This document shows positions 1 to 35,776 of a DNA stretch of 44,218 nt, one piece after another. The stretch lies in IMG/VR virus record IMGVR_UViG_3300017598_000986, positions 1-44,218 of that record; one strand, given 5' to 3'. Numbering within the stretch: the stretch's first letter is position 1; the number at the start of each line of letters is the position of its first letter. Under the pieces are notes generated by a model that was not told the DNA's origin, did no database searches, and saw only the letters and a program-made list of their open reading frames with translations. Origin of the DNA: a virus. A program made the position numbers and the translations under genes.

Positions 1-1095
1 ACAATCTCCTGTGTCACCTGTTGCACCACAAGAACCGATTAAACCACAAGAACCGATTAAACCACAATGACCTGTGGGACCTTGTGGACCACAATTACCT
101 GTTGGACCTAATGCTCCACAATCACCTTCTGGACCTTGATCACCACAAGAACCGATTAAACCACAAGAACCGATTAAACCACATGAACCAGTTAAACCTT
201 GTAAACCACATGAACCTGTTAAACCACATGAACCGATTAAACCGCAATTACCTTCTGGACCTTGTGGACCGCAAAAACCTAAAGTACCACAAAAACCCTT
301 TGTTCCACAGTAACCGGCAAGTCCGCAAGCGCCTTGATTACCACAAAAACCCTCTGGACCACAACTACCGATTAAACCACAATTACCTTCTGGACCTTGT
401 GGACCGCAATGTCCTAGTGGACCACAATCTCCTATAGGACCACAAACTCCTTGTGAACCACAAAAACCTACAAGACCACAATGACCTTGTAAACCACAAA
501 CACCTGGAACACCGCAGTCACCCTCTGGACCACAAGGACCTTGCGAACCTACCGGACCACAGGAACCTTCTGGACCGCAAAAACCCTCTAAGCCACAAGA
601 ACCTGTGTCACCCTGAGGACCACAAAAACCTTCCGGACCGCAAGCACCCTCTGGACCGCAAGCGCCCTCTGGACCGCACGGACCTTCTTGACCGATTGGA
701 CCACAAGGACCTTCTGGGCCGCAAAAACCTTCTGGACCGCAAATACCTATAGTACCACAAGGGCCTTGTAAACCACAATTACCATCAGGACCTCCGGGGC
801 CACAATCACCTTCAGGACCACACTCACCTTGTGGACCACATTGACCTTCAGGGCCACACTCACCTTGAGGACCACAATCTCCAAACGGACCACATACACC
901 AGAAGGACCACAATCCCCTTCAAGGCCACAAGGTCCTGATGGACCGCAATAACCGACAGGACCACACCATCCGCGAATACCACAAAACCCTACTGGACCA
1001 CATACTCCAAGCGGACCACACCACCCCGTAGTACCTTCACTCGGTAATTTTCTTTTTAGAAAAAAGCCTTCATTTTGTTTTTTTAATATCGGCAT
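1..1095 (-). CDS. Cysteine-rich collagen-like protein (3' end outside the window)
   Basis: Reading leftward from the ATG at 1093-1095, the frame stays open to base 1, giving 365 codons and no stop. After a 20-residue basic N-terminus ([10 protein letters not shown]... ending near PSE) the rest is 115 consecutive Gly-X-Y triplets with no break in register. Pro, Leu and Ile are common in X or Y. By hand count there are 52 Cys, all in the Y position, so the usual unit is Gly-Pro-x-Gly-x-Cys. There is no signal peptide or membrane segment. The start overlaps the end of the upstream glycosyltransferase gene by 13 bases. Collagen-like triplets are common in phage fibres, where they form trimeric rods; cysteine in nearly every second triplet is not typical of the family. 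A virion fibre or surface adhesin is the likeliest role by context. A polyproline-II bundle held by disulfides is an alternative fold. Confidence 0.88.
24..66 (-). repeat. 43-base direct repeat, copy A
   Basis: This 43-base stretch is identical to 141-183. The offset is 117 bases (13 Gly-X-Y triplets), so the reading register is kept. It encodes repeats of the Gly-Ser-Cys/Gly-Leu-Ile type. The identity at the nucleotide level points to recent slippage or recombination within the repeat. Confidence 0.85.
141..183 (-). repeat. 43-base direct repeat, copy B
   Basis: Second copy of the unit at 24-66, base for base identical over 43 bases and in the same frame. It is followed by further close variants up to about 240. 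Confidence 0.85.
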
Positions 1096-3143
1096 TTATT
1101 AGAAATTTCCATCAACCTCTGTGCAGTATTTGCCCAGGTTGAATGTTTGACTTGTTCAATACCCGCCTTAGAATACTCATTCCACAAGTCTTCATTTGTC
1201 AGTAATTTTTTTATTGCTTCTAAAAATCTTTGTTTATGGTCTTCGTCTTTATTAAATCCCTCAACAACTATACCAGCATTACCTACTCTATCCCGAAGAG
1301 GACCCCATTCACTTACTATACAGGGAGTTCCTGCAGCTTGAGCTTCAATAGCAGTGATACAAAATGTTTCAAGCCAAGTACAAGGATATAACCATAACTT
1401 ACTAGATAAATACTCTGCTGCAAGTTCGTACTGCTTGTGGTAACCTCTATATATTACTCCTGGAATTTCTCTCCAATAACTAGGATGCTTTCTTATATTA
1501 TCTGGATAATAACCAAATACATGTAATTCAAGCTCTGGATCCCACTTATGTAGTTCTTCAAATACATCAAATAGTACAGTAAGTCCACGATCGGGATTAC
1601 TAGAATATATCAATTTTTTAGGATTTCTCCTAATCTTTTGTTCGAATCTTTTTAAATCCAAGCCATTCGGAAGTATTTCAAATGTATCTTTTGGAATCCA
1701 AGGATAAGCATTAGAAAAAAATCTATAATGATATTGAGATAATACAAGAAATTTATCAAAATACTGCCAGTTTGCTGGAGTTATTCTTTGATAATAATTC
1801 AAGTCATGTGCCCAATAATATACCTGAGTCTTTGGATTTACAAATCTAAACTCTGGGTATCTAGATACTATAAGTACATCAATATCATTAGTCCTTTCAA
1901 ACTCATCAAATTCATCCATGAGTTTCCAAATTACCCCATCGTAAGTTCCTGGAGTATGTCCCCTATTAAATACATATACAGTATTTCCTAAACTAGCTAA
2001 TTCTTTACTCAAGTTTATAACGGCTATTTCTGATCCACCAATACCTTCCTCTGTATGCCCAGCATCCCAAGGACGGCCCGCATCCGGCTTGACATGAAAT
2101 ACATATGTTTTTAAAGCCTCTTTATTCACAGTAAAATGTGTTTCCTGAGCTCTTGAATACTCATAAGAAGACCGAGCTGCTTCGTAAGTCTTATAATCTA
2201 CATAAGGTGCTAGAGTCTCTGAAACACTTTTAAAATCATAAGTGTAATTACCTGTACCAACTAAATAACCAATAGCTTCTTGTGAACCAGCACATATAGC
2301 ACGTTGAAAATATTTTCTGGATTGATCATAAGTAGTACCACCGTACAAGCTAACCCCATAATTAAATTCTGAGGTTATATAAGAAATAACAGCATTCTCC
2401 ATATACTCCTGCTTGAGGCTTGTACATTTTTCTAAATCAGTTGCTTGTAGACGTTCTAGAATATCCGGATATCTTTTTATCAGACTTGCTGCAATTATAA
2501 ATCCGTTCAGGGCACTAAATCCCTGGTTAGTATCTATATCTAAATTATATTTATTTATATGACACTTGATATCTTCCAGTGGCTCGTTTTGTTCAAATGA
2601 TTGATGATACTTGTGATCTACAGAGTATCTATAATCTATAAGCATTTTCAAATTATTCTTGTCTGCAAAAATGCAGGAATCAAAATCTAATCCTCCAAAG
2701 AAATAATCTGCATTGTCAAAATTAAACTTATCTACAAAATACTTAGTAAGCACTGTATTTTGAAAATCTATGTATTTTACCAACATTGGCTCAGTCAGGT
2801 CTAATTTCTGAGGCATACCATGGGGCTGTGTATCAATTACTTTAGTCGAAATAATACCAAGCTCATTATCATACTTTATGTATTCAAGAAACTTAGTCAG
2901 ATAATCTTGGTTCAAGTCGAGTGATATATCATTGTTAATTAACCAATATCCAGCATAGTCTTTTTCTTTTTGTTCCTTGAGCCACTGAATAACTGCCTGA
3001 TCAAATCCTATGTTTAAATCACTATTATCAAAAACAGTCAGGTCAAATAAATTTGAATCATAACTATTTAATTGATTGACCAGCTTTTCAGTCAGGCCGT
3101 GAGTTTTATATGTGATAATTAATATTGCTAATTTATTTAACAT
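1083..3143 (-). CDS. Two-domain glycosyltransferase (GT-A/GT2-like plus GT4)
   Basis: A 686-residue protein. The N-terminal part resembles a GT2-type GT-A fold: it opens with [12 protein letters not shown], has an acidic TVFDNSD segment and a WLINNDISL stretch where a DxD-like metal site would lie. The C-terminal half is a GT4-type GT-B enzyme: [15 protein letters not shown] is its nucleotide-fold entry, SNPDRGL the inter-domain region, and [16 protein letters not shown] carries the E-x7-E donor-binding motif with both glutamates. The middle, about residues 200-330, is unassigned. The start overlaps the upstream methyltransferase-glycosyltransferase gene by 7 bases, and the collagen-like gene begins inside its 3' end, so the three are probably co-translated. 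Fusion of two glycosyltransferases suggests two successive sugar additions. The acceptor is unknown; a virion fibre or phage-made glycan is an inference from position. Confidence 0.88.
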
Positions 3144-4948
3144 GGCATATATTTGGTTAAATGTTCAAGATATTCAGGGCTATCTTTATGTAAAGAATAC
3201 CAACCTTCCCCTGTACGGAGTCCGTGTAATTTTTTAAAATGTTCTTGAAACTTAAGCTTAACTCTATCTAGACTATAGTTTGCTACTGCATACTCTCTTA
3301 TTTTCTTTGGATCTAACTTATCTAGGTTTTTAGCCCCCCAGTATATTTCATTAAATGTGTTTCCCCTATAACCGGTAAGTCCGTGAATATTTGTTTCCGT
3401 GAAAGCTCCGTAATCACTTGTAAGTACAGGAGTCCCACACATCATTGCTTCTACGGGCGCATGTCCAAATGGCTCTACATACAGACTAAAATAAATCAAG
3501 CCACGAGCACCCGAAATATATTTTACCTTATCCTTCATAGAAAGAACACCAGTTTGCTTGACATGATCTAGATTTTCCTTGTATTCTGGGTTCAGAGCAT
3601 CCCTGATGTCTCCTCCACCAATAACTATAAGTTCTGCACCAAGTTGTCGAGTAAGTTCTATAGCTACAGATACCCCTTTACCCCATATAATTCTACCTAT
3701 GTAAACATAATAGTCAGATTTCTTTTCTACAAAAGGATAATCTGCTGGATCAAAGTATGCAGGAATTACGGTATCATAATTATTTGGAAAGAAACTTTGT
3801 CTTGGAGGACATTCTTTTCCGTAAACATGATTCTGCCAAGCATAAGATTCAAATATTCTATTCTGCAAGTAACTTCCGTTGTGCCCAATACCTGGTTCTA
3901 CACTAATAACTCTAACTTCCAGGTGGTCAGTAATTGGTTTATATACATAACCAAGGAAATTAATCAAGAATTCTTTTCCTTCGTCTTTTATTCTCTTTTC
4001 AATTTCACGAATACCATTTCTATTGAACTCATCCCAAGCAGGCCCAGCTTCTTCATGAAGATTGTCTAGAGCATTTGGATTACGTTCTCCGTATTCTTTT
4101 TCAAATGTCTTACTGGATACTAAAGGAACAAACTCATCCATATAAGGAGTATCAGATCCTTCTACTCCATAACCTATTATTTCATGACCAAGATCTTTCA
4201 TCATTTTAGCTAAGTATATTAACTTAGTGTTAAATGGATTGTTAGGAGCTTTTTCCCAACCTATTCTATAATTAGGAAATCCTAATAAATGTATTCTGTA
4301 TTTTGCTGGCATTTCATACTTTGATTTTTGTTTAATTACTACTGCGTTCCATTCCCATTCATCTTTAGCTTTAATTACCTCTACACTACCTAACTCTTCT
4401 AGATCTTTTTTCTCTATACCTTCTATATGTTCATCTGCCCCATCCTTGAATGTAGCATAAGGGGTAGGTATGGTAGCAATAAGAATACCATTGTCTGCTA
4501 ACATTCCACGAAGCTTGTCTATTACATCAAGTGGCTTGTGTAAGTGTTCTAGTATTTCTGCTGCTATAATTACATCATATTTTTTATCTGCTTGAAACTT
4601 GTAGACACTCTCGTTTATAAAATTCAAGTGCTTGTATGTTTCTTTTCCCAAGTTACAAGCTGCAGTGCAAATTTCAAGACAATCTATATTCTTGTATCCA
4701 TGGGTTGATATTTCATTTGCAATTGCACCTGTCCAACTACCTATATCTAAAACTTTTGCTGTTGTCTTATATTTATTGACCTTACTAACTACCCAACCTA
4801 CCCTACCTTTCACCAAGGGATTATTTATATCATCAATCCAAACATCGGTTCTTGTACGATAAAAATTATCAAGTGATTCAAGAACTAATTCTGAATAATC
4901 TTTTTCTCTATATTTTTTAGAAGCTTCTTCTAAGCTTAAGTAATTCAT
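3137..4948 (-). CDS. Methyltransferase-glycosyltransferase fusion
   Basis: A 603-residue protein. Residues about 45-200 form a class I SAM-dependent methyltransferase: VLDIGSWTGAIANEI is the SAM-binding motif I, and DVIIAAEILEHLHKP followed by MLADNGILIATIP matches the methyltransf_11/23 type. From about residue 220 it is a GT4-family GT-B glycosyltransferase, with YVYIGRIIWGKGV at the domain hinge and EPFGHAPVEAMMCGTPVLTS holding the E-x7-E motif. Both active regions look intact. The gene starts 13 bases after the 275-residue tail protein ends and overlaps the next glycosyltransferase by 7 bases. A single protein that both glycosylates and methylates suggests synthesis of an O-methylated, perhaps capped, sugar chain. 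Substrate unknown. Confidence 0.88.
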   Translation of the reverse strand: MNYLSLEEASKKYREKDYSELVLESLDNFYRTRTDVWIDDINNPLVKGRVGWVVSKVNKYKTTAKVLDIGSWTGAIANEISTHGYKNIDCLEICTAACNLGKETYKHLNFINESVYKFQADKKYDVIIAAEILEHLHKPLDVIDKLRGMLADNGILIATIPTPYATFKDGADEHIEGIEKKDLEELGSVEVIKAKDEWEWNAVVIKQKSKYEMPAKYRIHLLGFPNYRIGWEKAPNNPFNTKLIYLAKMMKDLGHEIIGYGVEGSDTPYMDEFVPLVSSKTFEKEYGERNPNALDNLHEEAGPAWDEFNRNGIREIEKRIKDEGKEFLINFLGYVYKPITDHLEVRVISVEPGIGHNGSYLQNRIFESYAWQNHVYGKECPPRQSFFPNNYDTVIPAYFDPADYPFVEKKSDYYVYIGRIIWGKGVSVAIELTRQLGAELIVIGGGDIRDALNPEYKENLDHVKQTGVLSMKDKVKYISGARGLIYFSLYVEPFGHAPVEAMMCGTPVLTSDYGAFTETNIHGLTGYRGNTFNEIYWGAKNLDKLDPKKIREYAVANYSLDRVKLKFQEHFKKLHGLRTGEGWYSLHKDSPEYLEHLTKYMPC

Positions 4949-4960
4949 GTATATTTTTGA

Positions 4961-5788
4961 TTAAAACAGATCAGGATCTGCTAGCAATGCAAAATAATTT
5001 ACATACCCACCGTTACCATCTGAATCTGTTGTTATTGTTAAACGTACTTGTACAGCTGTAGTAGGCAGTATTCCATTTCCAAATACATCACCTTCATATG
5101 CTAGTATTTCCATTCTACTATAGTCCAAATATCCATTTGGAAAATGATCTAGCAGGGTAGAACCCGCTGTACTGGTATCATACCATGTAAACCAGATCTT
5201 ATCTACATCACCAGGATTTGAACAAAATTCCATCTTTACATTTGCATCTCCGTAATGTTCTTCTTCAATTTGCATAGTCCATCTAGTTGATGCTACACTT
5301 ATATTTGCATCTTCCGATAATTCATTAGGAGTAAATACATATATTTTAGATAAATATTCATATGATGTACTAGCTGCCGCTCCATCTGGAGTTGTAGCTC
5401 TATTATATTCATCTATAACTAATGGATTTGAAACTTCACCAAAAGTAGTTGTATTTACAGGATCACTAAATGTTTCAATAACTGCTCTAGAACACCAGCT
5501 AGTTGCCAAAGCCCAGTTTTGTAATTCAATTAACTTGGGATCTTCTGCAGGATTTATAATCAAGTCAGTTATACTATCAAAAGTTTGAATACTGAATGCA
5601 CCACTTGTATCAAGGACTGTATCAGTATATAAATCAGTAATCCGTACAAGACCAGACACAGTAGTATCATTTGGAACTATCCAATCATAACTACCTGTAC
5701 CAAAATCGGCTGATAAACCAGATACAATAGTAGACCAACTATCTCCACCATCATTACTATACTGTATTAATAAACTAGCATCAGCCAT
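4961..5788 (-). CDS. Tail adhesin accessory protein with half of a Kre9/KNH-type Ig-like domain
   Basis: A 275-residue protein. Residues 1-70 (LLIQYSNDGGDSWSTI, then SYDWIVPND and SGAFSI) read as the second half of a Kre9/KNH-type Ig-like domain. Its first half (TGGEEYYNGQYKPITW) is the C-terminus of the upstream 1757-residue adhesin. The rest, about 85-275, is a beta-rich region with no family I recognise, ending in a strand-rich stretch that may be a carbohydrate-binding sandwich. The ATG lies in a TAATG overlap with the upstream stop and has a GAGG Shine-Dalgarno at 5796-5799, so independent translation is plausible. It could instead be the out-of-frame end of the adhesin, through recoding or a sequencing indel. 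Confidence 0.82.
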   Translation of the reverse strand: MADASLLIQYSNDGGDSWSTIVSGLSADFGTGSYDWIVPNDTTVSGLVRITDLYTDTVLDTSGAFSIQTFDSITDLIINPAEDPKLIELQNWALATSWCSRAVIETFSDPVNTTTFGEVSNPLVIDEYNRATTPDGAAASTSYEYLSKIYVFTPNELSEDANISVASTRWTMQIEEEHYGDANVKMEFCSNPGDVDKIWFTWYDTSTAGSTLLDHFPNGYLDYSRMEILAYEGDVFGNGILPTTAVQVRLTITTDSDGNGGYVNYFALLADPDLF

Positions 5789-8700: not shown

Positions 8701-11061
8701 ATAGTCATCAAAGAAAGTTACTTCTTCATTAAATCCATTTGCATCATATCCTTTAGTTGTCCACTCTGTCCAGGTTTCACTCAGACCACTTACGTGAAAT
8801 ATTAAGTCTCCACCTGGATTATAATATAAGTTATTATCACAATAACTTGCAGCGTCAAAATCTTCTGGATAAGATGCTCCGAACCCACTTATGTTAGTAT
8901 AGAATATATTATTCAGAACTTTACATTCTGCATCTCTACCTGATGCAGTATAATCCCATATTTCTACTGGATAAGTTATGCCACTTAAAACATAAATTGT
9001 ATTATTATATATTTCTGCTATTCCATTATTATCAATTTCTGTAGTAAATCCGATACCTACCCCAGTACAATTTCCATCGGCATACACAAGATTATTATAT
9101 ATTTTTGAAGTTCCTAAAGTATTTAAGCCGACTATTCCACTTTTATTTTGAGTAGCTAAACTTGTTTCTAAATTAATTTTATTTCTATTTAGAATAATAT
9201 CTTCTTCACCTTCATAATAAATTCCATTTAATTGAGGTGTATCATGATAATTTGTAATTGTAATAACATTATCCTGAACCGTATTGTTACTACCACTTAC
9301 AAGATAGATTCCGTCAGTAGTTGCATTTTGATATATTGCTGTAGTTATTGTTAATTTTTCAAATAATCCATTTATTACACCATTTGAATACACCGCACTT
9401 GAAATGTTTGCATCTAAAATACAATCTGACAAAGTAATATCTGTACAGTCTTTAAATTCTATAATTCCGTCGCCAACGGCCGGAACAAACTCAGTAAGTG
9501 TAAACCCATCTATTGTGATATTGTCTATACCAGAAACTAAGATGGCCACACTTTCTCCATCAATTTTATTTCTAATAATAGCTGTACCATCGTGTCCCGA
9601 ATCAATTCCTTGCAAAATACTAATGCCAGAAGCGGTAGGAATAATAGTAGCATCTATTGCGTATGTTTTTGATTCTACCCCACCGGAAACATATAAATTT
9701 GATCCGGGTTCCATCAGATCCCAATTTATAGCTGGCCAACTTTTCCACGCATTGGTCCAACTTAAGCCGGTTGCATTTCCTGTTGCTCCAAGATCTAGAT
9801 AATAATCTGTTGCCGCAGGGAAAATAAATTCATAAGCCCCCATATCCCAATCTGCCCCTTGAGGTCGAGGCACTTCTAATAAATCTTGTTCGTATGCTGG
9901 TAAAGCATTTGGGTCAGTACTTGTATTAATAGCAGGCGAACTTTCAGACAGTCTATAGTCATCTGAAGCTTCATTATAATATAATGGGGTATCATATAAA
10001 CTGTTCCAATCTATATCATAGGTATTTTGCCATTCTTTTAGAGAATAACTATACTTATCTTGAGTACGAGCAATGTATTGATCAAGACGTTGAACAAAAT
10101 ATAAATTATAATCATAGCTATGACTTCCGTCATCCACTGCTGCTGTAGCTAAAAATACAGTGTATCCGGTAAACCCTCCGTTTTTTGAAAAAATATTGCC
10201 CTGTACTGTTTGATTAGTAGAAGTTGTGTTATATATTCCCCCAACGGTATTGTTGTCTATAGTATTTTGAAATATTTCATCGACAGAAAATATTGTTCCA
10301 TCAAGTCCGGATCTCCAATTAAAATTCAAGCCATATTCAAGATTGTCATATATTAGATTTCCATAGAAAGTACCACCTAAAGATTTACGACTATAAATTC
10401 CATTTAACCCATTTGCATAAATTTTATTAAATCTAATTATATTATTATCTAAACTGGTTTGGGTTTCAGCGGCGCCAGGTTGTAATCTAATTCCATTTCC
10501 GTTTAAATTATTATGGATTTTATTAAATTCTATTGTGTTGTTTCCCGACATTCCATTTGCACCAATACTTGGAAACTGTTCTACATAGATTCCTTCAGTA
10601 CCTGAATTATATACATCGTTATTATATATAGTATTATATGAACCTACCATATATATTCCCGCTCCTGCACAGCCATGTATAATACAATTATTTACTTGAT
10701 TATAATCTCCTCTAACTACTACACCATTAATAAGATTAGAATTAATAATTTCAAATCCATCTATAATATTATAATCATAATAATTTGTAGACCAATCCCA
10801 AGCTACTCCGAGATACCCAGAACAATCAATTATAACTACATCGGTACTATAATTTTGAAATGTGATAGGTTGTCCAGAAGACCCAGCAGCTTTCATAGTT
10901 AATACACTACTTGGGGCATAAGTTCCTGCTTTTACATATACCGTATCGTTAGCTACAGCGGTATCTATTCCTTTTTGAATAGTTTCCCAAGGAAGAGCTT
11001 CGGTGCCCGGATTGCTGTCGCTGGTCGATGGATGATTTTTATCTACATAATATGTAGCCAT
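5788..11061 (-). CDS. Giant tail adhesin: three beta-helix modules and five Ig-like repeats
   Basis: A 1757-residue protein. It contains three tandem right-handed parallel beta-helix modules at about 1-410, 416-824 and 826-1234. Each opens with a YYVD/YYLD-type strand and a line such as GDTLYISGG, is rich in N-N-x-I/Y repeats, and closes with RPQG...D-x-GA-x-E, the signature seen at the end of choice-of-anchor Q/pectate-lyase-like proteins. Five Ig-like repeats of about 97 residues follow (from about 1238), most starting DTTPPxLxSA and containing LTFSE. The last 25 residues begin a Kre9/KNH-like domain that stops midway. Beta-helix modules in phage fibres often bind or cleave surface polysaccharide; I cannot identify catalytic residues, so depolymerase activity is unproven. 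It lies in the fibre series between two smaller beta-rich proteins. Confidence 0.9.
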   Translation of the reverse strand: MATYYVDKNHPSTSDSNPGTEALPWETIQKGIDTAVANDTVYVKAGTYAPSSVLTMKAAGSSGQPITFQNYSTDVVIIDCSGYLGVAWDWSTNYYDYNIIDGFEIINSNLINGVVVRGDYNQVNNCIIHGCAGAGIYMVGSYNTIYNNDVYNSGTEGIYVEQFPSIGANGMSGNNTIEFNKIHNNLNGNGIRLQPGAAETQTSLDNNIIRFNKIYANGLNGIYSRKSLGGTFYGNLIYDNLEYGLNFNWRSGLDGTIFSVDEIFQNTIDNNTVGGIYNTTSTNQTVQGNIFSKNGGFTGYTVFLATAAVDDGSHSYDYNLYFVQRLDQYIARTQDKYSYSLKEWQNTYDIDWNSLYDTPLYYNEASDDYRLSESSPAINTSTDPNALPAYEQDLLEVPRPQGADWDMGAYEFIFPAATDYYLDLGATGNATGLSWTNAWKSWPAINWDLMEPGSNLYVSGGVESKTYAIDATIIPTASGISILQGIDSGHDGTAIIRNKIDGESVAILVSGIDNITIDGFTLTEFVPAVGDGIIEFKDCTDITLSDCILDANISSAVYSNGVINGLFEKLTITTAIYQNATTDGIYLVSGSNNTVQDNVITITNYHDTPQLNGIYYEGEEDIILNRNKINLETSLATQNKSGIVGLNTLGTSKIYNNLVYADGNCTGVGIGFTTEIDNNGIAEIYNNTIYVLSGITYPVEIWDYTASGRDAECKVLNNIFYTNISGFGASYPEDFDAASYCDNNLYYNPGGDLIFHVSGLSETWTEWTTKGYDANGFNEEVTFFDDYSPNKASSCIDNGQAITGLDTDVNQVPRPQGLAADIGAHENRKGYYVDNTSDADPGDGERWKTAWSSFANIDWGLFEPGDTLYISGGDDDASESKIYYETLDVLASGILTDPLYIIPGQDPDHDGEVIIDGLNLTKSRGISVDSYDHLVISGITIRNQQAHGIYVTKADDVKIYDCNLLFYGRGIEVSYGTDYTISGCYLQSPPFIGAETDGIYSQDNVDCIIENNQIYIYNNYDPSQNDCIQVYRDLNTIVRNNYCVQDTEKIHNSRGIAGRACSGTLEIYNNVVDMKNTQSEAISYENTDDAAGDLEVFNNTIYGRRLYHSLYSDGVSDPKIKNNIFQSDYTTYFVRINDWAGTVTNIDYNIYYGPQTSSLINLDGTVKDWDVWQGDGFDPNGINEDPKFINVDTGQLQLQSNSSAIDNGITLSGFSYDINYESRPQGSAWDMGAYEGVGVDITPPEVVGATIIDSTTLIIEFSEDMVKTEVEKPSVYSFTGGILATGASYNVLTKEVTLFTSEHDYEKYQVTVSNVHDLANNIIDPGNNTAEYEYYYVDTTPPDLNSAELLVSTAVELTFSENITEDTAQRLSNYSIPGVELVAAVHNLNIVTLITTEHSYGNYEVTVNGIEDLYGNVINPAANSATYSRIYVDTTPPELISAVATDATGVYLTFSEWLDTTGSDNKDNYSISGITISSAYTYWQDPKYVSLTTSTHSPGIYEVVLASGITDESGNPISESANSLEYEYTALPELLSVSGLNDITVELKFSKHLEYYTATDDTNYEITGPSSIKVDTATLSGPVVNLTTSKPTANGTYTVVATGVKDIYDVEVVPPNNSGIYEFFADLTPPTVTNAELINTSVLKVSFSESLLVSTSDNIEQYQITKESVSGVVQVYGVQIADDQVYLTTGPHTYLTDYRITVSGVTDYEGNEIEVPDNYALYTYTVSGISGTLTAPTGGEEYYNGQYKPITWILEEL

Positions 11062-12131
11062 TAATATCTAGTCTCGTTAGTTGTTAAAGTAGTTGTAGCT
11101 ACCGTGGTTTCTGTTTTGAATCCTACCCATACTTTAACATAAGTATTTATAGGAATTCTAACTATTGCTCTATTAGTTGGAACTGTGTTATTAAAATACC
11201 ATGTGCCATAAGCATCAGTAGTCGGGTATGGCCAAGGGTACTCCGAAGGTTTTCCTTCATCACTTATGTATAAAAATATTGTATAACCACTTATATTTTT
11301 TAACTGTTTCTCTGTTAAAGAAACTGGTTGTCCAAGTGCATTATAAAATTGTGTATCTGCAGAAACAGATTTCATGTCATCCCACGCACAAACAAGTTCA
11401 TCGGTGGGGATAGTCAAATAATTTGCATCTATGGCAGAAACTGTATTGCTTGTAACCAAATTTGTAACTCCCACATATTCATCAAGATCGGTAATACCAT
11501 AAAACAAAACTTGTGAAAAAGGTTCTACTGGAACTCCTGCTATTTCTGCAATCTCATTTACGGGATTAAAAAATTGAGCCTTGAAATGGAACAGGGTTGG
11601 TTTTTCTGGGAGTTCAAGTTCAGCTATTCCAGTGATAGTGGTAAGATCTTCATCAATGTTTACCGCGCCAACATCAAGATTCAAGTTATCTAGAAGTTGC
11701 CATTCATTATCTGCGTCCGCACGGAAAAATATAGATGTGGCTGCTACTCTACCCTGTGTAGTTTCAATATCAGTAATTGTATATTCCGCAGTGACAAGTT
11801 CTCCCTGCTTCATAAATTTACTATCTTTTTCTACTACACCAAGATAAGGAGTAGTTGCAAAAATTATCGGATCGTATGTAACAAGGCCACTAATAGTAGG
11901 ATCAGGAAATTCATCTACTACATCAATTTCTAACCAATCGTCTTCAGTTAGGTTTCTTCCAAAGAAACGAACCTGATAGTGTCCAGTTGCAACACCAAGG
12001 AAATAGTACAGTCCATCTTCTTCAGTAATATCGACATCTAACCTTTGACCATCCGTATTATACAAACAGGCCTGGGCACCTAAGATACCGGTACCGTCGG
12101 CCCTTTTTAAATAATTTTTATATGTGGCCAT
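11061..12131 (-). CDS. Beta-rich tail fibre-associated protein
   Basis: A 356-residue protein. Residues 1-75 look like a prealbumin/carboxypeptidase-regulatory-like beta-sandwich (GILGAQACLYNTDGQR, then EEDGLYYFLGVATGHYQVRF), a fold phages use as a structural spacer. Two further beta-rich regions follow, about 100-215 and 225-350, without a recognised family. The stop overlaps the next gene's start as TAATG, so it is translationally coupled to the giant adhesin. A fibre connector or minor adhesin is likely from context; no enzymatic motif is visible. Confidence 0.82.
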   Translation of the reverse strand: MATYKNYLKRADGTGILGAQACLYNTDGQRLDVDITEEDGLYYFLGVATGHYQVRFFGRNLTEDDWLEIDVVDEFPDPTISGLVTYDPIIFATTPYLGVVEKDSKFMKQGELVTAEYTITDIETTQGRVAATSIFFRADADNEWQLLDNLNLDVGAVNIDEDLTTITGIAELELPEKPTLFHFKAQFFNPVNEIAEIAGVPVEPFSQVLFYGITDLDEYVGVTNLVTSNTVSAIDANYLTIPTDELVCAWDDMKSVSADTQFYNALGQPVSLTEKQLKNISGYTIFLYISDEGKPSEYPWPYPTTDAYGTWYFNNTVPTNRAIVRIPINTYVKVWVGFKTETTVATTTLTTNETRY

Positions 12132-12143
12132 GTTTATTCTGGT

Positions 12144-12596
12144 TTATTCTGCGTCTATTGTGCCTGTACCCCCGCCTACACTAAAATAAGGTCTTCCTGC
12201 TACAGCTACCTTACCTTTTAGGCTGCAAGTGTTATTTGGAGCCCCGGTATCTGGATCCCAAGCATCAACAATGACTTTTCTATCAGATCCATACCTCGAT
12301 GCTATTACTAAATTAATAGGTTGCAAATGGATTCCAACTCCAGATAATTCTATTGTGGCAGCAGCACTTTCTCTACCATATTGGTAAACTCTTATAATTG
12401 CTGGGTTTGATCCAGTAGCTCCGGAAATTGCAGTACAATTAACTTGAATCTCCGTCAATGTATAATCGGCTGGTAAATTTTGTTCTCCGATTTTTCTCGA
12501 TGCCTTTGTGGTTCCACCAACCCAAACCTGTCCAGGGGCCGGATCGACGGTAAAAGGATCTACCGTTATTGTTTGTGTAAAAGTTGATACTGCCAT
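12144..12596 (-). CDS. Small virion-associated protein of unknown function
   Basis: A 150-residue protein that I do not recognise. It is predicted mostly beta from alternating Thr/Val/Ile strands, has no cysteine cluster or membrane segment, and ends in a glycine-rich GGGTGTIDAE tail. It overlaps the upstream 907-residue fibre-like gene by TAATG and lies 12 bases before the 356-residue gene, so it belongs to the fibre operon. A fibre cap or connector is a guess based on position. Confidence 0.8.
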   Translation of the reverse strand: MAVSTFTQTITVDPFTVDPAPGQVWVGGTTKASRKIGEQNLPADYTLTEIQVNCTAISGATGSNPAIIRVYQYGRESAAATIELSGVGIHLQPINLVIASRYGSDRKVIVDAWDPDTGAPNNTCSLKGKVAVAGRPYFSVGGGTGTIDAE

Positions 12597-15319
12597 TATT
12601 CCTCCGTAAATCTTAAAGTATTAGTAAGAATGCTAGTTTCTTCTGAACCCGAATATATAACTACGCCCGCAAGAGTACTTTCTCCCCACAATTCATTATT
12701 AGCTCCAGAAATTGTAAATTCATTATCTTCTACCCCTGGAGTTATTGTGCCAGATGCTACAACTATGTTAAAGTCAAATGGTCCCACTATTATGCCGTCA
12801 CTTGGAATTATTCCTCCACCGCCCGATGCTACAATTCCTAATATAGGAGTTCCTACAGGTTGATTATTTTGAATAGGTCTTACTCCAACTGTCCATGTGG
12901 TACTTTGATTTGTACTAATTTGTAGAGTACGATTTATAGTTCGTAAAAATGTTGCCCCGCTTTTCTTTGTGGTTGAATAGCTAGAATTTTCCCAAGTTAT
13001 TCCGCTAAGAGTTGTGTAACCCACCTCAAACTCATGCGGAGATGTGTCTCTAGTATCACTTTCCCAACCCTCAATTTCAAGCTTGAACCCGTATGCGGTT
13101 GCAGTAAGAGTTAATGATGGGGTTGATGTCGCTCCATCTATATACGGCAGTACATTATTAAAAGGAGATGAATAAAAAGTTTGTTGTTGACCTCCTGCAG
13201 CATGATCTGGATCATAAACGCCCGGCAGCATAGTTACATAAGGACTTGAATGTGCCTTATTGCCAGCTTTTATTGATATAGACCATTTTTTATTTAGATC
13301 TAGCTTAAAGGCATGTTCTGGATCTAAAGCTATGTTATCATAATCAAGAGTTATTATAATTGCTCTTTTAGTCAAGCTATCATCATCGACATTTAATTCA
13401 ATGGCGCGTATAGTATAATATAGAACATTAGGATCTACTATCTTGGCTGGATATATATCTGAAATAACATCTGCTGCAACATGTGCCTCTGCAAGAGTAA
13501 CAGTTCGTGTGGTTGCATCATAAGAATCTATATCATATAAATTTCCAGATGAAGAAAAATAAAATTGTCTTATAGTAGCGGCTCCCTCTGTCAAGTTCAA
13601 AGTTTCTCCGGTTGTAGTTTGCGCATTCAAAACTACCTCATCTGTGCTTTGCTTAGTACCATTCAGGCCATCCCAATTCCACTTTAGGTGAACATAACTT
13701 ACAGATTCTCGTCTATCACCTGAAGGACTCACATCATATATTCTAAAATTGCTTGGTGTGTTTACATCTGGATCTTCAAGTACCACCGCTCTTCCAGCAG
13801 GGTAAGCAGTACTACCAACCCCTACTCTAAATTCTTCTGCTGCTGTTCCTGGTAAATTAAAATTGCTAACATCATTGCCTTGAACTGCTAGCCCAGACAC
13901 AGTAATATATCCAGCCGAAGTAGTAGTAAATGTGGCGTCGGTTGCAATTAATGTATCAACTGTCGCAGTAGTAATTGTAGCTACACTTAATGTCGATGTA
14001 GATGGCACTTCAAGTGCATATGCATATACTTTTCTGTTTGTATTATCTATATTTAATACATAATTCCCCGCCAGATTTAAAAATTCAAATGGTCTGTTAT
14101 ACGTAACAGGTTGTGCATACCCTCTACCATAATTTGGATCTACTGTTCCTACTGATTCTACACCTATATTAAATATAGTTGATTCGGCTGCAGTAGCTGG
14201 AACATGAGATATTTTTATTGTAGTTCCATCTGCGTTAACAGACGCATTTCTTAGATCTAGTTCTACGGTAGGATTTATATAATTACCTATAAAACCTCCG
14301 GTAGTAGCGACAAACGCTGCGCTTGGAGGAGTACTAGGGTCAATTCCATCTCCTTCAGTTTCAAAAGAAGTTGTAAATCCTACAACAAAATTGTGATTGT
14401 AATCAAAAACAGCATATCCTCTTTGTCCGGCGGTGTCAGAAAATACAATTCCTGTATTATAAGTATTTCCAGATTTAATTTTAACATAGCTAGCGCCCGC
14501 ATTATCGACAGTAAGAATTCCGGAAACATTGGTGGTTGATAATTCAGATATCCCGGATGCAGTAAGCGTGCTTGTATACAAGCCTTCGGCTTCGAGACCA
14601 CCAGCTATTCTGTTAGCTCCAATAGAATCTCTATCTTTAAATACTAATAAAGAATCATCAAGCACGTCATGACTTATCCGGTAAGTATAATCTTTTCGTA
14701 TGTCTATAATATTGTCTGTAGAAGCCCGTAGTTCGCTTATATCTTGGAAAGTATAATCTCCATCTGTTAACTTAGTACTTACTGACGCAGTATAAACAAT
14801 TGCTAAAGGTATTTCATCAGCTGAAACATCTATATCTACACTTGGAGTTCTTACATATGCAACAACTTCATAACTATCACTCCAACGCGAAAATCTTTCT
14901 GCGTAAGGAGTTAATCCAGCTTTATCAAAAAAGAAAGCATTCATAGCTACAATAGGATCAGTACCTTCTTCTTTCCATTTCAAGTGAATTTCATAATAAG
15001 TAGTTGATGCTACTGAACCAGAATAAACATTAGCAAGATCAAATGAAAACGCAGTCTCAACTAATATTACGCTGCCGTCAGATAATAAAGCTACCCCGGG
15101 GTGTATTGTCATTGTTTGATCATCGGTACTAGATACAGTAACTTTTAAGCCAGTTGATGTAGCAACCTGAGCATCGTTTTTCAATGCATTCAGAGTTCCA
15201 TATGTTCCTGTAATGGCATCTATTCTTTTATTTAAGTTACCATGTACAAGCGTCTGTAAATCATCAAAAACTGTTTCTAATTTTTGTACACTACCAGAAG
15301 GTATTTTGACTCTATCCAT
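12596..15319 (-). CDS. Long tail fibre-like structural protein
   Basis: A 907-residue protein. The N-terminal 40 residues (VQKLETVFDDLQTLVHGNLNKRID) are amphipathic and could form a trimeric coiled coil or baseplate-attachment helix. After that it is almost wholly beta-rich, Ser/Thr/Gly/Asp-heavy, with few charged clusters, as in phage fibre shafts. Residues about 55-215 resemble an attachment domain found in phage structural proteins (TMTIHPGVALLSDGSVILVE). The C-terminus NNELWGESTLAGVVIY may be a tip domain. It sits between the tail-collar fibre and small beta proteins, all leftward and with spacings of 14 bases or less. It may be a proximal or second host-range fibre. Confidence 0.82.
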   Translation of the reverse strand: MDRVKIPSGSVQKLETVFDDLQTLVHGNLNKRIDAITGTYGTLNALKNDAQVATSTGLKVTVSSTDDQTMTIHPGVALLSDGSVILVETAFSFDLANVYSGSVASTTYYEIHLKWKEEGTDPIVAMNAFFFDKAGLTPYAERFSRWSDSYEVVAYVRTPSVDIDVSADEIPLAIVYTASVSTKLTDGDYTFQDISELRASTDNIIDIRKDYTYRISHDVLDDSLLVFKDRDSIGANRIAGGLEAEGLYTSTLTASGISELSTTNVSGILTVDNAGASYVKIKSGNTYNTGIVFSDTAGQRGYAVFDYNHNFVVGFTTSFETEGDGIDPSTPPSAAFVATTGGFIGNYINPTVELDLRNASVNADGTTIKISHVPATAAESTIFNIGVESVGTVDPNYGRGYAQPVTYNRPFEFLNLAGNYVLNIDNTNRKVYAYALEVPSTSTLSVATITTATVDTLIATDATFTTTSAGYITVSGLAVQGNDVSNFNLPGTAAEEFRVGVGSTAYPAGRAVVLEDPDVNTPSNFRIYDVSPSGDRRESVSYVHLKWNWDGLNGTKQSTDEVVLNAQTTTGETLNLTEGAATIRQFYFSSSGNLYDIDSYDATTRTVTLAEAHVAADVISDIYPAKIVDPNVLYYTIRAIELNVDDDSLTKRAIIITLDYDNIALDPEHAFKLDLNKKWSISIKAGNKAHSSPYVTMLPGVYDPDHAAGGQQQTFYSSPFNNVLPYIDGATSTPSLTLTATAYGFKLEIEGWESDTRDTSPHEFEVGYTTLSGITWENSSYSTTKKSGATFLRTINRTLQISTNQSTTWTVGVRPIQNNQPVGTPILGIVASGGGGIIPSDGIIVGPFDFNIVVASGTITPGVEDNEFTISGANNELWGESTLAGVVIYSGSEETSILTNTLRFTEE

Positions 15320-15333: not shown

Positions 15334-17106
15334 TTAATATTTGATTAAATAATAAACTGCTTGGTTTACAGGTCTTGTTTCATCTCCACCAGAAGCCTGA
15401 CTATTTGGGTATCCTGCAGTCGGACTTGCATGACCACCGATATTATCTCCACCCGCCCCTAAAGTAGATGCCCAGTTATGGGCCAATTCATGTGTATGAG
15501 ATTCAAATGCTTGTGCCTGAAGATCTCCAACCGCTCTGCCTACATCCGGATCTACCGCACCAGATGGGTCAAGGCCTCTTAAGAATACTCCCATGAGATC
15601 TGGTAATTGTCCTGCTCCTCCCCACGCACTTCCTATTGCATCGTGCAAATCAGAATATGTCCCTGTACTGTAAGTCGCTCCATTACAATAAAACCATCCA
15701 GTAATTGGTTCTACTAAATTAGAAGAAGATAAAGAACCAAGATCTCCGGCATAAGTTATTACAGTTCCTGCAGGAACATACCTAAATAAAATATCAGTTT
15801 TTATGGATGCGTCGAACTCAAGTGTATTCCCATTCATTAAAAGACCACTTACATTTACAGCAAAGCCTGTTTTATCCATGTCAATTGCTGCACCCGAACT
15901 AATATTAGCATTATCAATAACTCCGCTATCTATCATGAGGGTCAATTGAGAACCATTTCTAGACCAAGAAATATCTCCAGCACTGTCTTCTGTATAGGCA
16001 ATTACAGATGACCCATTTCCACCAAGTATTGTTTCATCAGCTATTGCAGAACCTTTTAATTTAGCCAGAGTTACTACATCATTTGCTATAGAAGCTGCGC
16101 CTGTGGCTGATAAAGAAACATCTCCAGACATTCCCACAGCTGTCGGAACATTGCCAGCACTACCTACCAAAATATACCCGCCAGTCATGCTAGCTAATTT
16201 ATCATGTTCAAGAGCTCCATCATCTATAAATGACCATCCACCACTTATCGTAACAGGGCCATTATTTATAATTACATCTGTTGCTGTTGCTACAAGGCCT
16301 GCAGCTGTCACTGTGCCTTGAACTTCGAGATCTCCAACAATTGTATGTGAACCAGCTACTTTTCCGAAAGTAACATCTTGATCTAAAGTTATTGTAGAAT
16401 CAGTATCAAATCTAAAAAGACGTGTTCCATCAAATCTCAATTCAAAATATTCACTAGAACCTGTGAGATCGGCTGTGAAAGAATAGTTAGTTCCACCAGC
16501 ATCTCTGAATACTAAATATCCTTGTGTACTGGTAGTTTCTACTCGTATTTCTGGTGATGCTGCTTTTAAATGTACTTCAGCACTCGCCGCAGCCGCATGT
16601 TCCGTACCAGCTGCTAAATTACCATCTACGATCACATTTCCTCCAAACTCTGCCACGTTACCACCAGTTACAGAAGCTACTTTTACTCCGAGTACCTGGC
16701 TGGTTTCATTCAGTATGCAAACCTCTGAATTTCTTACATATAGAACATTAGAAGTTACATATGTATCTACTCCATTAGACCCGAGTATTTGTAAATCATA
16801 TTGTGAGGCTGCAGACACATCCATATCAGAAACTGTTCCAGAATCTGAAACCACTAAGAATAGCGCGGTCGATTCAAGGTCTCTTCTAGAAATTGTCATA
16901 GTGTTGGTTCCACTACGATAAGAAGATACGAGTGTTTTGTTTGTCAGGATTTGACTTTCTGTAGTTCCAACTATAGAACCACCTACAGCTGCGATAGTTG
17001 CTGTATTAGCACTTGTTTCTGCATTTATTGCATTTACGTTTGCATTCCACTGTACGCGACCCTCATTCGGGGTATCTGTTCCAGCTACGTCTGTTACACT
17101 AGCCAT
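15334..17106 (-). CDS. Tail fibre with C-terminal tail-collar domain
   Basis: A 590-residue protein. The N-terminal half is a low-complexity Thr/Ser/Ala-rich shaft with a TESQILTNKTL motif common in phage fibres. Residues about 440-590 form a phage tail collar domain (PF07484 type): GWFYCNGATYS, then PDLMGVFLRGLD, then ESHTHE and a C-terminal ETRPVNQAVYYLIKY. The His-x-His pair near residues 536-540 corresponds to the metal-binding loop of T4 gp12-like collars. The start is supported by an AAGGAG site 6 bases upstream and by a promoter-like motif above it. It is the first gene after a 61-base gap and may begin its own transcript. Confidence 0.9.
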   Translation of the reverse strand: MASVTDVAGTDTPNEGRVQWNANVNAINAETSANTATIAAVGGSIVGTTESQILTNKTLVSSYRSGTNTMTISRRDLESTALFLVVSDSGTVSDMDVSAASQYDLQILGSNGVDTYVTSNVLYVRNSEVCILNETSQVLGVKVASVTGGNVAEFGGNVIVDGNLAAGTEHAAAASAEVHLKAASPEIRVETTSTQGYLVFRDAGGTNYSFTADLTGSSEYFELRFDGTRLFRFDTDSTITLDQDVTFGKVAGSHTIVGDLEVQGTVTAAGLVATATDVIINNGPVTISGGWSFIDDGALEHDKLASMTGGYILVGSAGNVPTAVGMSGDVSLSATGAASIANDVVTLAKLKGSAIADETILGGNGSSVIAYTEDSAGDISWSRNGSQLTLMIDSGVIDNANISSGAAIDMDKTGFAVNVSGLLMNGNTLEFDASIKTDILFRYVPAGTVITYAGDLGSLSSSNLVEPITGWFYCNGATYSTGTYSDLHDAIGSAWGGAGQLPDLMGVFLRGLDPSGAVDPDVGRAVGDLQAQAFESHTHELAHNWASTLGAGGDNIGGHASPTAGYPNSQASGGDETRPVNQAVYYLIKY

Positions 17107-17167: not shown

Positions 17168-18952
17168 TTAAGTTAAATATGTATATCTTAGTTCTGCATC
17201 TCCTACTTGAAAAGTTGTCTGTCCCCACGTAGTAAAACTATATGTGCCGTACACATTTTGCTCAATATCTATATCCCCTGAATTATCATAGTCTTGAGCA
17301 TTTATTCTAAATAAATAATATCTATCTACCGGAGGTGTAGTCAAAGTTGTAGTTGTAGCTATTTCTGTTGGGCTGTCAATAGTGCATTCCAGGCTTGGAC
17401 TACCATCAAAAGTAGTTAGAGGACTAACATGCGTCCATAAATAAGTCATAGGATCCCCTTCTGGGTCAGTAATAACTCCGGATAGAGTAGCTACTGCTCC
17501 TCCTGCATAAAATGAACTACCAGATGCTATACTGCCTCGAGGTACTAAATTAAAGTAATTCGCTAATAACCCTGCAGGGAGTAGAGCATTAGTGTAATAA
17601 TCTACAAAAGGTTCATAATGATCAAGTCCATATGTTCTGCTACTTCGTTGTATTCCAAGTGTGTACCAGAATTGCTCTGGATTAAGCTCTGTAAGTTCTT
17701 CTATTATTCCCGATGAACTAATATAGTCATGTAAGTGAATACCAGAAGCTATAATTTCATACCTATCTACCTCACTCCCTACTTCTAAAGCTGTTGTAAG
17801 TGGCATTGGAAATTGATAAGTATTTCCACCAGAAATTGCTACATAATTATAAGTTCCATCATCCCACACATTGCTTACAATTCCAGATTCATACGTAAAT
17901 GGCATACCTGATATTAAACAGTATGCATCATATAAATTACCAAAACTGGGTCCTTTAGATAAAGCATTAGTTAACCCCTGTGATAAATGTTTTAAATGTT
18001 CAGCATAATATCTGCGTTCATCAAAATAAGTAAATGCACCAGATAACCAACCACTAATATATGGAGTATAAGCATTATCATTTATCACTTCTTCAGGTTC
18101 ATTCACTTCTCCAAATGCCTTGAAATATAAATTTATAAGTGACGGTAACAAAAATATAGACTGAGGAGCATTAAATATTTCTCGTGTATCTGTATATTCA
18201 GAGTATGAGTATGTGGATGCATCACCAAAAAATTTGATATAATGCAACCTTTCTATTTCATAATCTGTCCCTTCTATTAAAACATTATCAGTATTTATAC
18301 CACTGAGTACAGGTATTGTTAAATAAGCGTAATCATTTGGCAATTCATAGACATACCCTGCTATAGTAGTGTTACTTGTAGGTAACGTTATTCCACTAGT
18401 AACCGGTAAAGTGCCATCATCTGTAAAATAAGTATTGGTTGTGTTTGTAATATAATAATAAGAGTTTTGTAATCTACCGTACACATTATAACTACTTACC
18501 CCACTTACCGCTTCCCAAGTTACGCTATTATAATTAGAATATAAATCTGACTGTCCACTTATGATAATTCTTGAATCGCTTGGTAAAGTTTCGCCATGTA
18601 CATCGAGTGCAGTGATTTTATAGTTGTATATAACGTCATCTCCAGAAGGAGCTGTGTTATACCCACTTATAGTTACAGGAGGATCATAGCTTTCAAGTTC
18701 TACGTTTTGGTTGTCACCGTCAAATATAACATCATAATCCTGGTATTGTTCTTCTATATACCCAGGAGTGTAATCAAGGTGCCCCGCAAGGGTAACCTGT
18801 GCCAAATCATATGGAAGTCCTTCCATAGCATTGAACAACTGTTCCCAATAAGCTTCTATGACTTCTTTCTCATTCCTTGGAACAAAGTCGTAGAAAGTAG
18901 AAAGTCTATTCCAAAATTTTGCAAAGTCTGTGGTGTTATTAGGACTAAACAT
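17168..18952 (-). CDS. Baseplate/tail protein with fibronectin-like and PKD-like inserts
   Basis: A 594-residue protein. The first 80 residues are helical and acidic (FAKFWNRLSTFYDFVPRN, EVIEAYWEQLFNAMEGLPYD) and look like a baseplate attachment region. Residues about 100-200 resemble a fibronectin-III-like domain (DVHGETLPSDS, then YNSVTWEAVSGVSSYNVYG, then TYFTDDGT). Near the C-terminus, about 485-565, a PKD-like segment reads TLSGVITDPEGDPMTYLW and ends in a FRINAQDYD strand. The gene follows the gp6-like baseplate gene with a TAATG overlap, the usual place for a wedge-to-fibre linker. Ser-Gly pairs are unusually frequent. The precise role is unassigned. Confidence 0.83.
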   Translation of the reverse strand: MFSPNNTTDFAKFWNRLSTFYDFVPRNEKEVIEAYWEQLFNAMEGLPYDLAQVTLAGHLDYTPGYIEEQYQDYDVIFDGDNQNVELESYDPPVTISGYNTAPSGDDVIYNYKITALDVHGETLPSDSRIIISGQSDLYSNYNSVTWEAVSGVSSYNVYGRLQNSYYYITNTTNTYFTDDGTLPVTSGITLPTSNTTIAGYVYELPNDYAYLTIPVLSGINTDNVLIEGTDYEIERLHYIKFFGDASTYSYSEYTDTREIFNAPQSIFLLPSLINLYFKAFGEVNEPEEVINDNAYTPYISGWLSGAFTYFDERRYYAEHLKHLSQGLTNALSKGPSFGNLYDAYCLISGMPFTYESGIVSNVWDDGTYNYVAISGGNTYQFPMPLTTALEVGSEVDRYEIIASGIHLHDYISSSGIIEELTELNPEQFWYTLGIQRSSRTYGLDHYEPFVDYYTNALLPAGLLANYFNLVPRGSIASGSSFYAGGAVATLSGVITDPEGDPMTYLWTHVSPLTTFDGSPSLECTIDSPTEIATTTTLTTPPVDRYYLFRINAQDYDNSGDIDIEQNVYGTYSFTTWGQTTFQVGDAELRYTYLT

Positions 18953-35046: not shown

Positions 35047-35561
35047 ATATCTATGGAAACCCAGTCCTGGATCAGGTCTGTGTCCCCTGTGAACTTAAAG
35101 AGAAAAAATCTTTTCTCAGTGATGTGTCTGAAGATGTTGAACAAGTTTGGCCCGATGAAATTGTCGAACTTGTGCAAGACTTAAAAGATACTGCCAACTC
35201 AAATGTAGAAAATACTCTAGGACTTGCAGCTCCGCAAATATGGTGGAAAGATACACCTTGCCCGGCAATATTTGTAGTCCGAGCAAATAAAGGAAGCGAA
35301 GAAATACCAGAGTGGGTCTACACCGAGCTCTTGAATCCGGAAATAAAAACCAGTGGCAAAACCGTACGTCCGCTGGAAGGATGCCTGAGTGTGCCAAAAT
35401 ATATGAGGCCTGTCAAGAGGGAAGCAAATGTCACTGTAACATATCAACTTGTATCTGGTCCAGAAGTATATACTTCTAAACTTTTTGGTAAAAATGATTT
35501 TAATGCGATCGTCATTCAACATGAATACGATCATCTAATGGGAAAACTTATAAAAAAATAA
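35031..35561 (+). CDS. def: Peptide deformylase
   Basis: A 176-residue metal-dependent peptide deformylase, the enzyme that removes the formyl group from nascent N-terminal methionine. All three motifs are present: motif 1 GLAAPQI (64-70), motif 2 EGCLS with metal-binding Cys118, and motif 3 QHEYDHL with His164, catalytic Glu165 and His168. Length is normal for the family, but there is an insert of about 20 residues (about 23-43) before the first helix. Phage-encoded deformylases are known in marine myoviruses, where they are thought to keep translation of phage proteins efficient. The 16-base overlap with the helicase implies coupled translation. Confidence 0.94.
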   Translation: MVREINIYGNPVLDQVCVPCELKEKKSFLSDVSEDVEQVWPDEIVELVQDLKDTANSNVENTLGLAAPQIWWKDTPCPAIFVVRANKGSEEIPEWVYTELLNPEIKTSGKTVRPLEGCLSVPKYMRPVKREANVTVTYQLVSGPEVYTSKLFGKNDFNAIVIQHEYDHLMGKLIKK

Positions 35562-35572
35562 GGAAACATCAT

Positions 35573-35773: not shown

Positions 35774-35776
35774 CTA

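What the first reader, a model, noticed from the sequence alone, without database searches (positions are those of the whole stretch)
1..1095. Collagen-like protein with cysteine in the Y position of almost every second triplet
The frame encodes 115 uninterrupted Gly-X-Y triplets with 52 cysteines by hand count, every one in Y. Ordinary phage collagen-like fibres have few or no cysteines inside the triple helix. Such density could make a covalently cross-linked fibre, a metal-loaded rod, or a disulfide-stapled polyproline-II bundle like that of the snow flea antifreeze protein. Translating the sequence shows the register and cysteine placement directly; the physical role is inference.
Basis: partly seen in the sequence, partly recalled or inferred. 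Interest (0 to 1): 0.88.

Follow-up and report, generated by a model that had tools for sequence, protein, structure and literature searches.

The report
Cysteine-studded collagen fibre of phages
A virus of bacteria encodes a collagen-like fibre with a cysteine at nearly every second repeat, always at the same outward-facing position; several unrelated phages share this design, and it may mark a new way of attaching sugars to collagen through sulphur.

Summary
The minus-strand frame 1-1095 is a 20-residue leader followed by 115 uninterrupted Gly-X-Y triplets. It has 52 Cys, all in Y, every 2 (40x) or 3 (11x) triplets. The contig end cuts the 3' end of the gene.

It is not an artefact. A related phage from another metagenome (L142; neighbouring glycosyltransferase 64% identical) has the same gene at the same place: 34 Cys, all in Y, with a different repeat sequence. 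Pattern scans found at least five further, unrelated phage groups with Cys-Y collagens: about 380 Cys in Y and none in X. Where several collagen proteins occur in one genome, essentially all carry Cys in Y, which points to a trans-acting cause.

An ideal triple helix built here puts in-register Y-Y thiols no closer than 5.9 A, while X-Y pairs could bond. Placing Cys only in Y therefore disfavours in-helix stapling. The snow-flea bundle idea is not supported.

The gene overlaps one glycosyltransferase gene and follows a second, of family phrog_3408, which accompanies collagens across phages. Most Cys-free phages with this enzyme also encode a 2OG-Fe(II) oxygenase; no Cys-Y phage examined does. 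Best guess, unproven: Y-cysteines are ready-made, oxygen-independent glycan acceptors. Cross-linking or metal binding remain rivals.

The parts
1..1095 (-). Cys-Y collagen-like protein gene, 365 codons seen, 3' end cut off by the contig end at position 1
   Evidence: Pfam PF01391 hits, 7 stretches over the cut-off; PHROG tail-fibre hits
1036..1095 (-). 20-residue leader [20 protein letters not shown], conserved in L142 (one change); resembles the N-terminus MPIIIEHSQGYLVKQRLIDES of the Cys-Y fibre of phage group B (L281:10899)
   Evidence: the resemblance to L281 is by eye
1..1035 (-). 115 uninterrupted Gly-X-Y triplets with 52 Cys, all in Y
1083..3143 (-). glycosyltransferase GTb, 686 aa, GT4-type C-terminal domain with E-x7-E (592-600); its end overlaps the collagen gene start by 13 bases
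3137..4948 (-). GTa, 603 aa: N-terminal SAM methyltransferase domain (residues 61-164) and phrog_3408 glycosyltransferase domain (214-587) with E-x7-E (492-500)
4961..5788 (-). 275-aa protein, no family; conserved in position in L142
5788..11061 (-). 1757-aa protein, probably fibre or adhesin; same order in L142
   Evidence: role inferred from position and sequence
11061..15319 (-). three further genes of the same operon (356, 150 and 907 aa)
15334..17106 (-). tail collar fibre protein
   Evidence: Collar PF07484 2.7e-9; phrog_523
18952..22128 (-). baseplate wedge protein; places the collagen gene in the tail/fibre module of a myovirus
   Evidence: phrog_6 5.7e-26; only hit in named phages is Bacillus phage G gp188, 30%

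Best explanation
The gene encodes a trimeric collagen-like virion fibre of a large myovirus. Its triple helix carries an outward thiol at about every second triplet of each chain. These thiols are placed to be modified, not to staple the helix. They most likely serve as native acceptors for sugars added by the phage's own glycosyltransferases GTa and GTb, encoded immediately upstream in the same operon, giving a densely S-glycosylated, brush-like fibre. Other phages with the same glycosyltransferase family appear to use acceptors made by a 2OG-Fe(II) oxygenase, or threonine; cysteine would be an oxygen-independent substitute. Shown here: the sequence, its conservation, Y-only placement in several unrelated groups, the gene neighbourhood, the geometry of an ideal helix, and the oxygenase contrast. 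Inferred: triple-helix formation, virion location, glycosylation and the S-linkage.
For: Collagen and Cys-Y conserved in L142 under purifying selection. About 380 Cys in Y and 0 in X over at least seven groups. Unrelated proteins of one phage share the design: in G002 a 511-aa protein, a 1267-aa fibre and a small head/decoration-like protein; in G009 three proteins. This implies a factor acting in trans. Geometry: Y-only Cys cannot pair within an undistorted helix, X-Y could. GTb overlaps the collagen gene. A phrog_3408 GT is present in groups A, B, C, D and, in one open frame with the collagen, in G, against 4 of 23 Cys-free collagen phages of at least 18 kb (Fisher p 0.015). In Cys-free phages this GT travels with a 2OG oxygenase: 4 of 4 against 3 of 19 without it, and in ACG-2014f the two genes overlap. 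In Cys-Y phages no such oxygenase was found by PF13640 or by a custom HMM, including two contigs that appear to cover the group B genome. Oxygenase-free GT phages have nucleophile-rich Y positions: S-CBWM1 43% and G031 49% T/S; groups A, C, D, G 54-68% and B about 35% C/T/S. G013, with oxygenase, has 2%. Precedents: mimivirus L230 hydroxylates and then glucosylates viral collagen (PMC9614988); BclA is a glycosylated bacterial collagen (PMC8968730).
Against: No direct evidence of any modification. The GT family is also found beside Cys-free collagens, so it is not Cys-specific. Known S-glycosyltransferases (SunS type, from memory) are GT2, not GT4. In group B the GTs are not adjacent to the collagens. 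Group F (22 kb) shows no GT. The oxygenase contrast rests on few independent lineages and partial contigs; S-CBWM1 and G031 are Cys-free, have the GT and lack the oxygenase, so oxygenase absence does not require Cys. Two phages with oxygenase (S-CAM7, ACG-2014f) are also Thr-rich in Y. The comparison set is a convenience sample.
Confidence: 0.4

Rival explanations
1. Thiols stay free in the reducing host cytoplasm and oxidise after lysis, linking neighbouring triple helices (bundled or fibril-like fibres), or form mixed disulfides with host-surface thiols, as a covalent cross-linker or adhesin.
For: Dense, regularly spaced outward thiols; aromatic and hydrophobic X residues beside many Cys (GFC, GYC, GWC) could favour lateral packing; Cys depleted in the other virion proteins of the window.
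Against: No glutaredoxin gene seen (other thiol-redox families not tested). Unmodified thiols at this density would tend to aggregate virions. Does not explain the GT association.
Confidence: 0.25
2. In-register Y-Y disulfides zip the three chains of one helix into a covalently closed rod.
For: A Cys780-Cys780 Y-Y disulfide forms between alpha1(I) chains with little loss of melting temperature (PMC6039012). All three chains have Cys at the same level.
Against: The ideal 7/2 helix gives Y-Y CB-CB 7.3 A and SG-SG at least 5.9 A, against 2.2 A for X-Y; a staple design should use X-Y pairs, and X never holds Cys. In R780C the bonded molecules were locally more open. One Cys in three is always left over.
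Confidence: 0.12
3. The thiols coordinate metal or iron-sulphur ions, giving a metal-loaded rod.
For: Up to three thiols per layer at about 17 A spacing along each chain.
Against: Y-Y sulphurs stay at least 5.9 A apart in one helix, too far for one metal ion to bridge without distortion. No metal-handling gene was noticed nearby.
Confidence: 0.08
4. A snow-flea-antifreeze-like bundle of polyproline-II strands joined by disulfides.
For: Gly every third residue and Cys are shared features.
Against: No turns or breaks in 115 (here) or 131 triplets (L281). Complete relatives have tail-fibre N-terminal and C-terminal domains. A bundle would need short strands.
Confidence: 0.03
5. Cys is a neutral Y residue, spread by repeat expansion in a few lineages.
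For: L142 has recent 81-base repeat duplications; such repeats evolve quickly.
Against: Cys is conserved against 24 synonymous changes; the same placement arose in several unrelated groups and, within one phage, in unrelated proteins.
Confidence: 0.1

Closest known systems
Phage collagen-like tail fibres (Pfam PF01391; PHROGs 6320, 5073, 819, 1806)
   Same: Long Gly-X-Y domain, X rich in Pro, encoded with baseplate and tail-fibre genes; PF01391 over the cut-off
   Different: Y is Gln/Thr-rich and Cys-free in the comparison phages; here 45% of Y is Cys
BclA exosporium collagen of Bacillus (glycosylated collagen-like protein)
   Same: Collagen-like rod; in the phage case glycosyltransferases are encoded next to it; a nucleophilic residue dominates Y
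   Different: The BclA acceptor is Thr (from memory for the residue); here Cys, and glycosylation is unproven
Mimivirus L230 lysyl hydroxylase-glucosyltransferase and its collagens
   Same: A virus encodes its own collagen and an enzyme that glycosylates collagen (PMC9614988)
   Different: L230 needs an oxygenase step; no PF13640-type 2OG oxygenase was found in the Cys-Y phages, and the GT family differs
Synechococcus phages S-CAM7, ACG-2014f and S-CBWM1: phrog_3408 GT beside collagen
   Same: Same GT family next to a collagen gene
   Different: Collagens Cys-free and Thr-rich; S-CAM7 and ACG-2014f also have a 2OG-Fe(II) oxygenase next to the GT
Snow flea antifreeze protein
   Same: Gly every third residue, Cys present
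   Different: Short polyproline-II strands with turns (from memory), versus one uninterrupted run
Type III collagen cystine knot and alpha1(I) R780C
   Same: Cys inside or at the end of a triple helix
   Different: Local or pathological, not a periodic Y-only array

Membership tests
Collagen-like protein (PF01391) | Long run of Gly-X-Y triplets with Pro-rich X | tested here: met
   115 triplets, X 33% Pro, seven PF01391 stretches over the cut-off
Collagen-like protein (PF01391) | Three chains in a triple helix | not testable with these tools
   No multimer prediction or biophysics; an ideal helix was only modelled
Phage tail-fibre or virion collagen | Encoded in a tail/fibre module; relatives with virion-type end domains | tested here: met
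   Baseplate, collar and fibre genes in the same operon; complete relatives with fibre-type ends; presence in virions untested
Glycosylated collagen of the BclA type | Thr in Y as main acceptor | tested here: not met
   Thr is 7% of Y, Cys 45%
Glycosylated collagen of the BclA type | Glycans on the collagen region | not testable with these tools
   Needs mass spectrometry
Hydroxylase plus GT collagen modification (mimivirus L230 type) | 2OG-Fe(II) hydroxylase encoded with the GT | tested here: not met
   PF13640 and a custom HMM find none in the window, G001, G002, G003, G008, G009 or G012; other oxygenase families not scanned
Snow-flea-type PPII bundle | Short Gly-rich PPII strands separated by turns | tested here: not met
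   Uninterrupted 115 triplets
S-glycoprotein biosynthesis (sublancin or glycocin type) | SunS-type GT2 enzyme acting on Cys | tested here: not met
   Both adjacent enzymes carry GT4-type domains; Cys as acceptor untested
phrog_3408 glycosyltransferases (GTa) | Match to the phrog_3408 profile over the GT domain | tested here: met
   2.4e-63 over profile 2-362/363

The most novel reading that the evidence does not exclude
A class of phage collagens whose Y-position cysteines are S-glycosylated by dedicated GT4 enzymes: an oxygen-independent counterpart of the hydroxylate-then-glycosylate route of animal and mimivirus collagens, evolved in several phage lineages.
Probability: 0.33. Interest if true: 0.9.

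Novelty: new variant of a known kind. Interest (0 to 1): 0.74.

Why it matters
Cysteine is normally kept out of collagen helices. Here about 380 cysteines in several unrelated phage groups all sit in the Y position, the position that carries known collagen modifications (4-hydroxyproline, hydroxylysine and its sugars, glycosyl-threonine; from general knowledge). If the cysteines carry sugars, this is a new collagen chemistry that needs no oxygen, and phrog_3408 would become a testable family of collagen glycosyltransferases. If they are free or cross-linked, it is a genetically encoded, periodically thiolated rod of interest for virion biology and materials. Either way, one small expression experiment can decide. 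No description of such proteins was found in the paper library searched, which is not a full literature search.

Tried and rejected
Searches used a pattern one base out of frame; their hits (L008-L141) are irrelevant and were discarded. One search found no relatives because its peptide patterns came from the variable repeats.

Antisense frames of GPQGPQ collagens reading GPCGPC, and simple repeats (GSCGSC and similar), were removed by requiring varied triplets and no collagen on the other strand. The idea that the GT is specific to Cys-Y phages was rejected: the same family stands beside Cys-free collagens. Glutaredoxin and anaerobic ribonucleotide reductase NrdD gave nothing, so there is no independent sign of redox handling or an anaerobic host. 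Habitat look-up by IMG number in papers: nothing. No tRNA for host clues. A first triple-helix model with the wrong handedness was replaced. AlphaFold was not used: a single chain of a trimeric repeat would be meaningless.

Full report
OBSERVATION. The window is an IMG/VR viral record of 44,218 bases. Positions 1-1095 on the minus strand are an open frame from an ATG at 1095 to the contig end. It has a 20-residue leader and then 115 uninterrupted Gly-X-Y triplets. All 52 cysteines are in Y, spaced by 2 (40x) or 3 (11x) triplets. Pro is the commonest X residue and is concentrated in the triplets between the Cys triplets. The gene is incomplete at its 3' end.

REAL, NOT AN ARTEFACT. Three traps were checked. 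First, ordinary GPQGPQ collagens read GPCGPC on the opposite strand; here the opposite strand has no collagen run and many stops. Second, simple repeats: this run uses 42 different triplets. Third, sequencing error or a one-off: searching with the neighbouring glycosyltransferase found L142, a 62.5-kb contig from another metagenome with the same gene order. Its collagen gene has the same leader and 34 Cys, all in Y, and is also cut by its contig end. Over the first 58 codons there are 24 synonymous and 6 non-synonymous differences, with all Gly and all Cys kept.

HOW WIDESPREAD. In-frame pattern scans of IMG/VR (complete with 78 stretches) gave genuine Cys-Y collagens in further groups: B (L281/L148/L188 and fragments L158, L169, L230, L231), C (L229), D (L260), E (L264), F (L276) and G (L305). 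In all of them Cys in X is zero. About 380 Cys were counted; with X and Y equally likely the chance is about 1e-115, although repeats are not independent. In every multi-protein case the design is shared by unrelated proteins: in G002 a 511-aa protein, a 1267-aa fibre and a 189-codon head/decoration-like protein; in G009 three proteins. The only Cys-free run of at least six triplets found in these genomes is a 6-triplet one in G002.

GEOMETRY. A 7/2 triple helix built from standard dihedrals fits well (rotation 51.6 degrees and rise 8.60 A per triplet, Gly N to X O 2.95 A). In it, in-register Y-Y pairs have CB-CB 7.3 A and SG-SG at least 5.9 A; X-Y pairs between chains can reach 2.2 A. Cys confined to Y therefore avoids in-helix disulfides unless the helix opens. 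Human collagen I R780C does form a Y-Y disulfide, with small loss of stability and local opening (PMC6039012), so this is disfavoured, not excluded.

NEIGHBOURS. Reading the minus strand, the operon runs from a baseplate wedge gene (18952-22128) through a collar fibre and several fibre-like genes to GTa (3137-4948), GTb (1083-3143) and the collagen, whose start overlaps GTb by 13 bases. GTa is a methyltransferase fused to a phrog_3408 GT4 domain; GTb has a GT4 C-terminal domain. Both carry an E-x7-E motif. The same two enzymes are in L142 (64-67% identity) and in group B (about 48-49%), where however they are not next to the collagens. A phrog_3408 GT lies in groups C and D and, in G, in one open frame with the Cys-Y collagen. 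That fusion lacks about 24 N-terminal GT residues and could be an assembly or deletion product.

COMPARISON SET. The same GT family also stands beside Cys-free collagens: G013, G015, G020, G023, G031, G032, and Synechococcus phages S-CAM7, ACG-2014f and S-CBWM1. Among contigs of at least 18 kb it is in 4 of 5 Cys-Y groups and 4 of 23 Cys-free records (Fisher p 0.015). In Cys-free IMG/VR records a 2OG-Fe(II) oxygenase accompanies the GT in 4 of 4, against 3 of 19 without the GT (hypergeometric about 0.004 by hand). In ACG-2014f the two genes overlap. In Cys-Y phages PF13640 and a custom HMM find no such oxygenase. For group B the two contigs G002 and G003 appear, from their offsets, to cover a genome of about 122 kb. 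Counting S-CBWM1 and G031, which are Cys-free, have the GT and lack the oxygenase, the contrast is 0 of 5 Cys-Y against 6 of 8 Cys-free (about 0.016 one-sided by hand), with non-independent lineages and partial contigs. The two exceptions have Thr/Ser-rich Y positions (43% and 49%), while G013, whose Y positions hold only 2% T/S/C, has the oxygenase. S-CAM7 and ACG-2014f have both the oxygenase and Thr-rich Y positions, so the rule is not exclusive.

INTERPRETATION. The most economical reading is that phrog_3408 enzymes decorate phage collagens and that the acceptor differs: a hydroxylated residue where an oxygenase is present, Thr in some phages, and Cys here. This mirrors mimivirus L230, which hydroxylates and glucosylates viral collagen (PMC9614988), and BclA (PMC8968730). 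The S-linkage itself is inference; known S-glycosyltransferases are of another GT class (from memory), and the GT family is not Cys-specific. I put S-glycosylation at about 0.4, thiol cross-linking between helices or to the host at 0.25, and in-helix disulfides, metal binding and neutrality lower. The PPII-bundle idea is not supported.

NOVELTY. The closest known kind is the phage collagen-like fibre; the periodic Y-only cysteine array is a new variant. Paper searches found no description of it, within an open-access library only.

Noticed in passing
window 40930-44217 (+): Sugar-pathway cluster at the other contig end: two GT2 glycosyltransferases (40930, 42767), a methyltransferase related to rhamnosyl O-methyltransferases (41546) and a UDP-GlcNAc 2-epimerase (43729, cut by the contig end).
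   Followed up: partly
window 24781-25503 (-): A 240-aa protein matching phage RNA polymerase sigma factor profile phrog_351 lies between structural genes.
   Followed up: no
window 35031-37617 (+): Phage peptide deformylase and a tRNA nucleotidyltransferase-like protein in the gene block on the plus strand.
   Followed up: no
window 18952-22128 (-): The baseplate wedge protein has only one relative among 50,697 named phage records, Bacillus phage G gp188 at 30% identity: a very divergent myovirus.
   Followed up: partly
L320:3346-6261 (contig IMGVR_UViG_3300005471_000235): One 971-codon open frame joins a Cys-Y collagen fibre to a phrog_3408 glycosyltransferase lacking its first ~24 residues: a natural fusion or a deletion/assembly product.
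   Followed up: partly
L148:5029-5598 (contig IMGVR_UViG_3300025073_000045): A small head/decoration-like protein (weak phrog_1731 match) with a C-terminal tail of 14 Cys-Y triplets, GLCGPxGLCGPx.
   Followed up: partly
L329 (S-CAM7), L467 (ACG-2014f), L460 (G013): Collagen, phrog_3408 GT and 2OG-Fe(II) oxygenase clusters suggest hydroxylated and glycosylated collagens in aquatic phages, worth a study of their own.
   Followed up: partly
L208 and L254: Very long perfect or near-perfect GPQ repeats (69 and about 100 triplets) in large phage contigs, whose antisense reads GPCGPC and can mislead any search for Cys-rich collagen.
   Followed up: no
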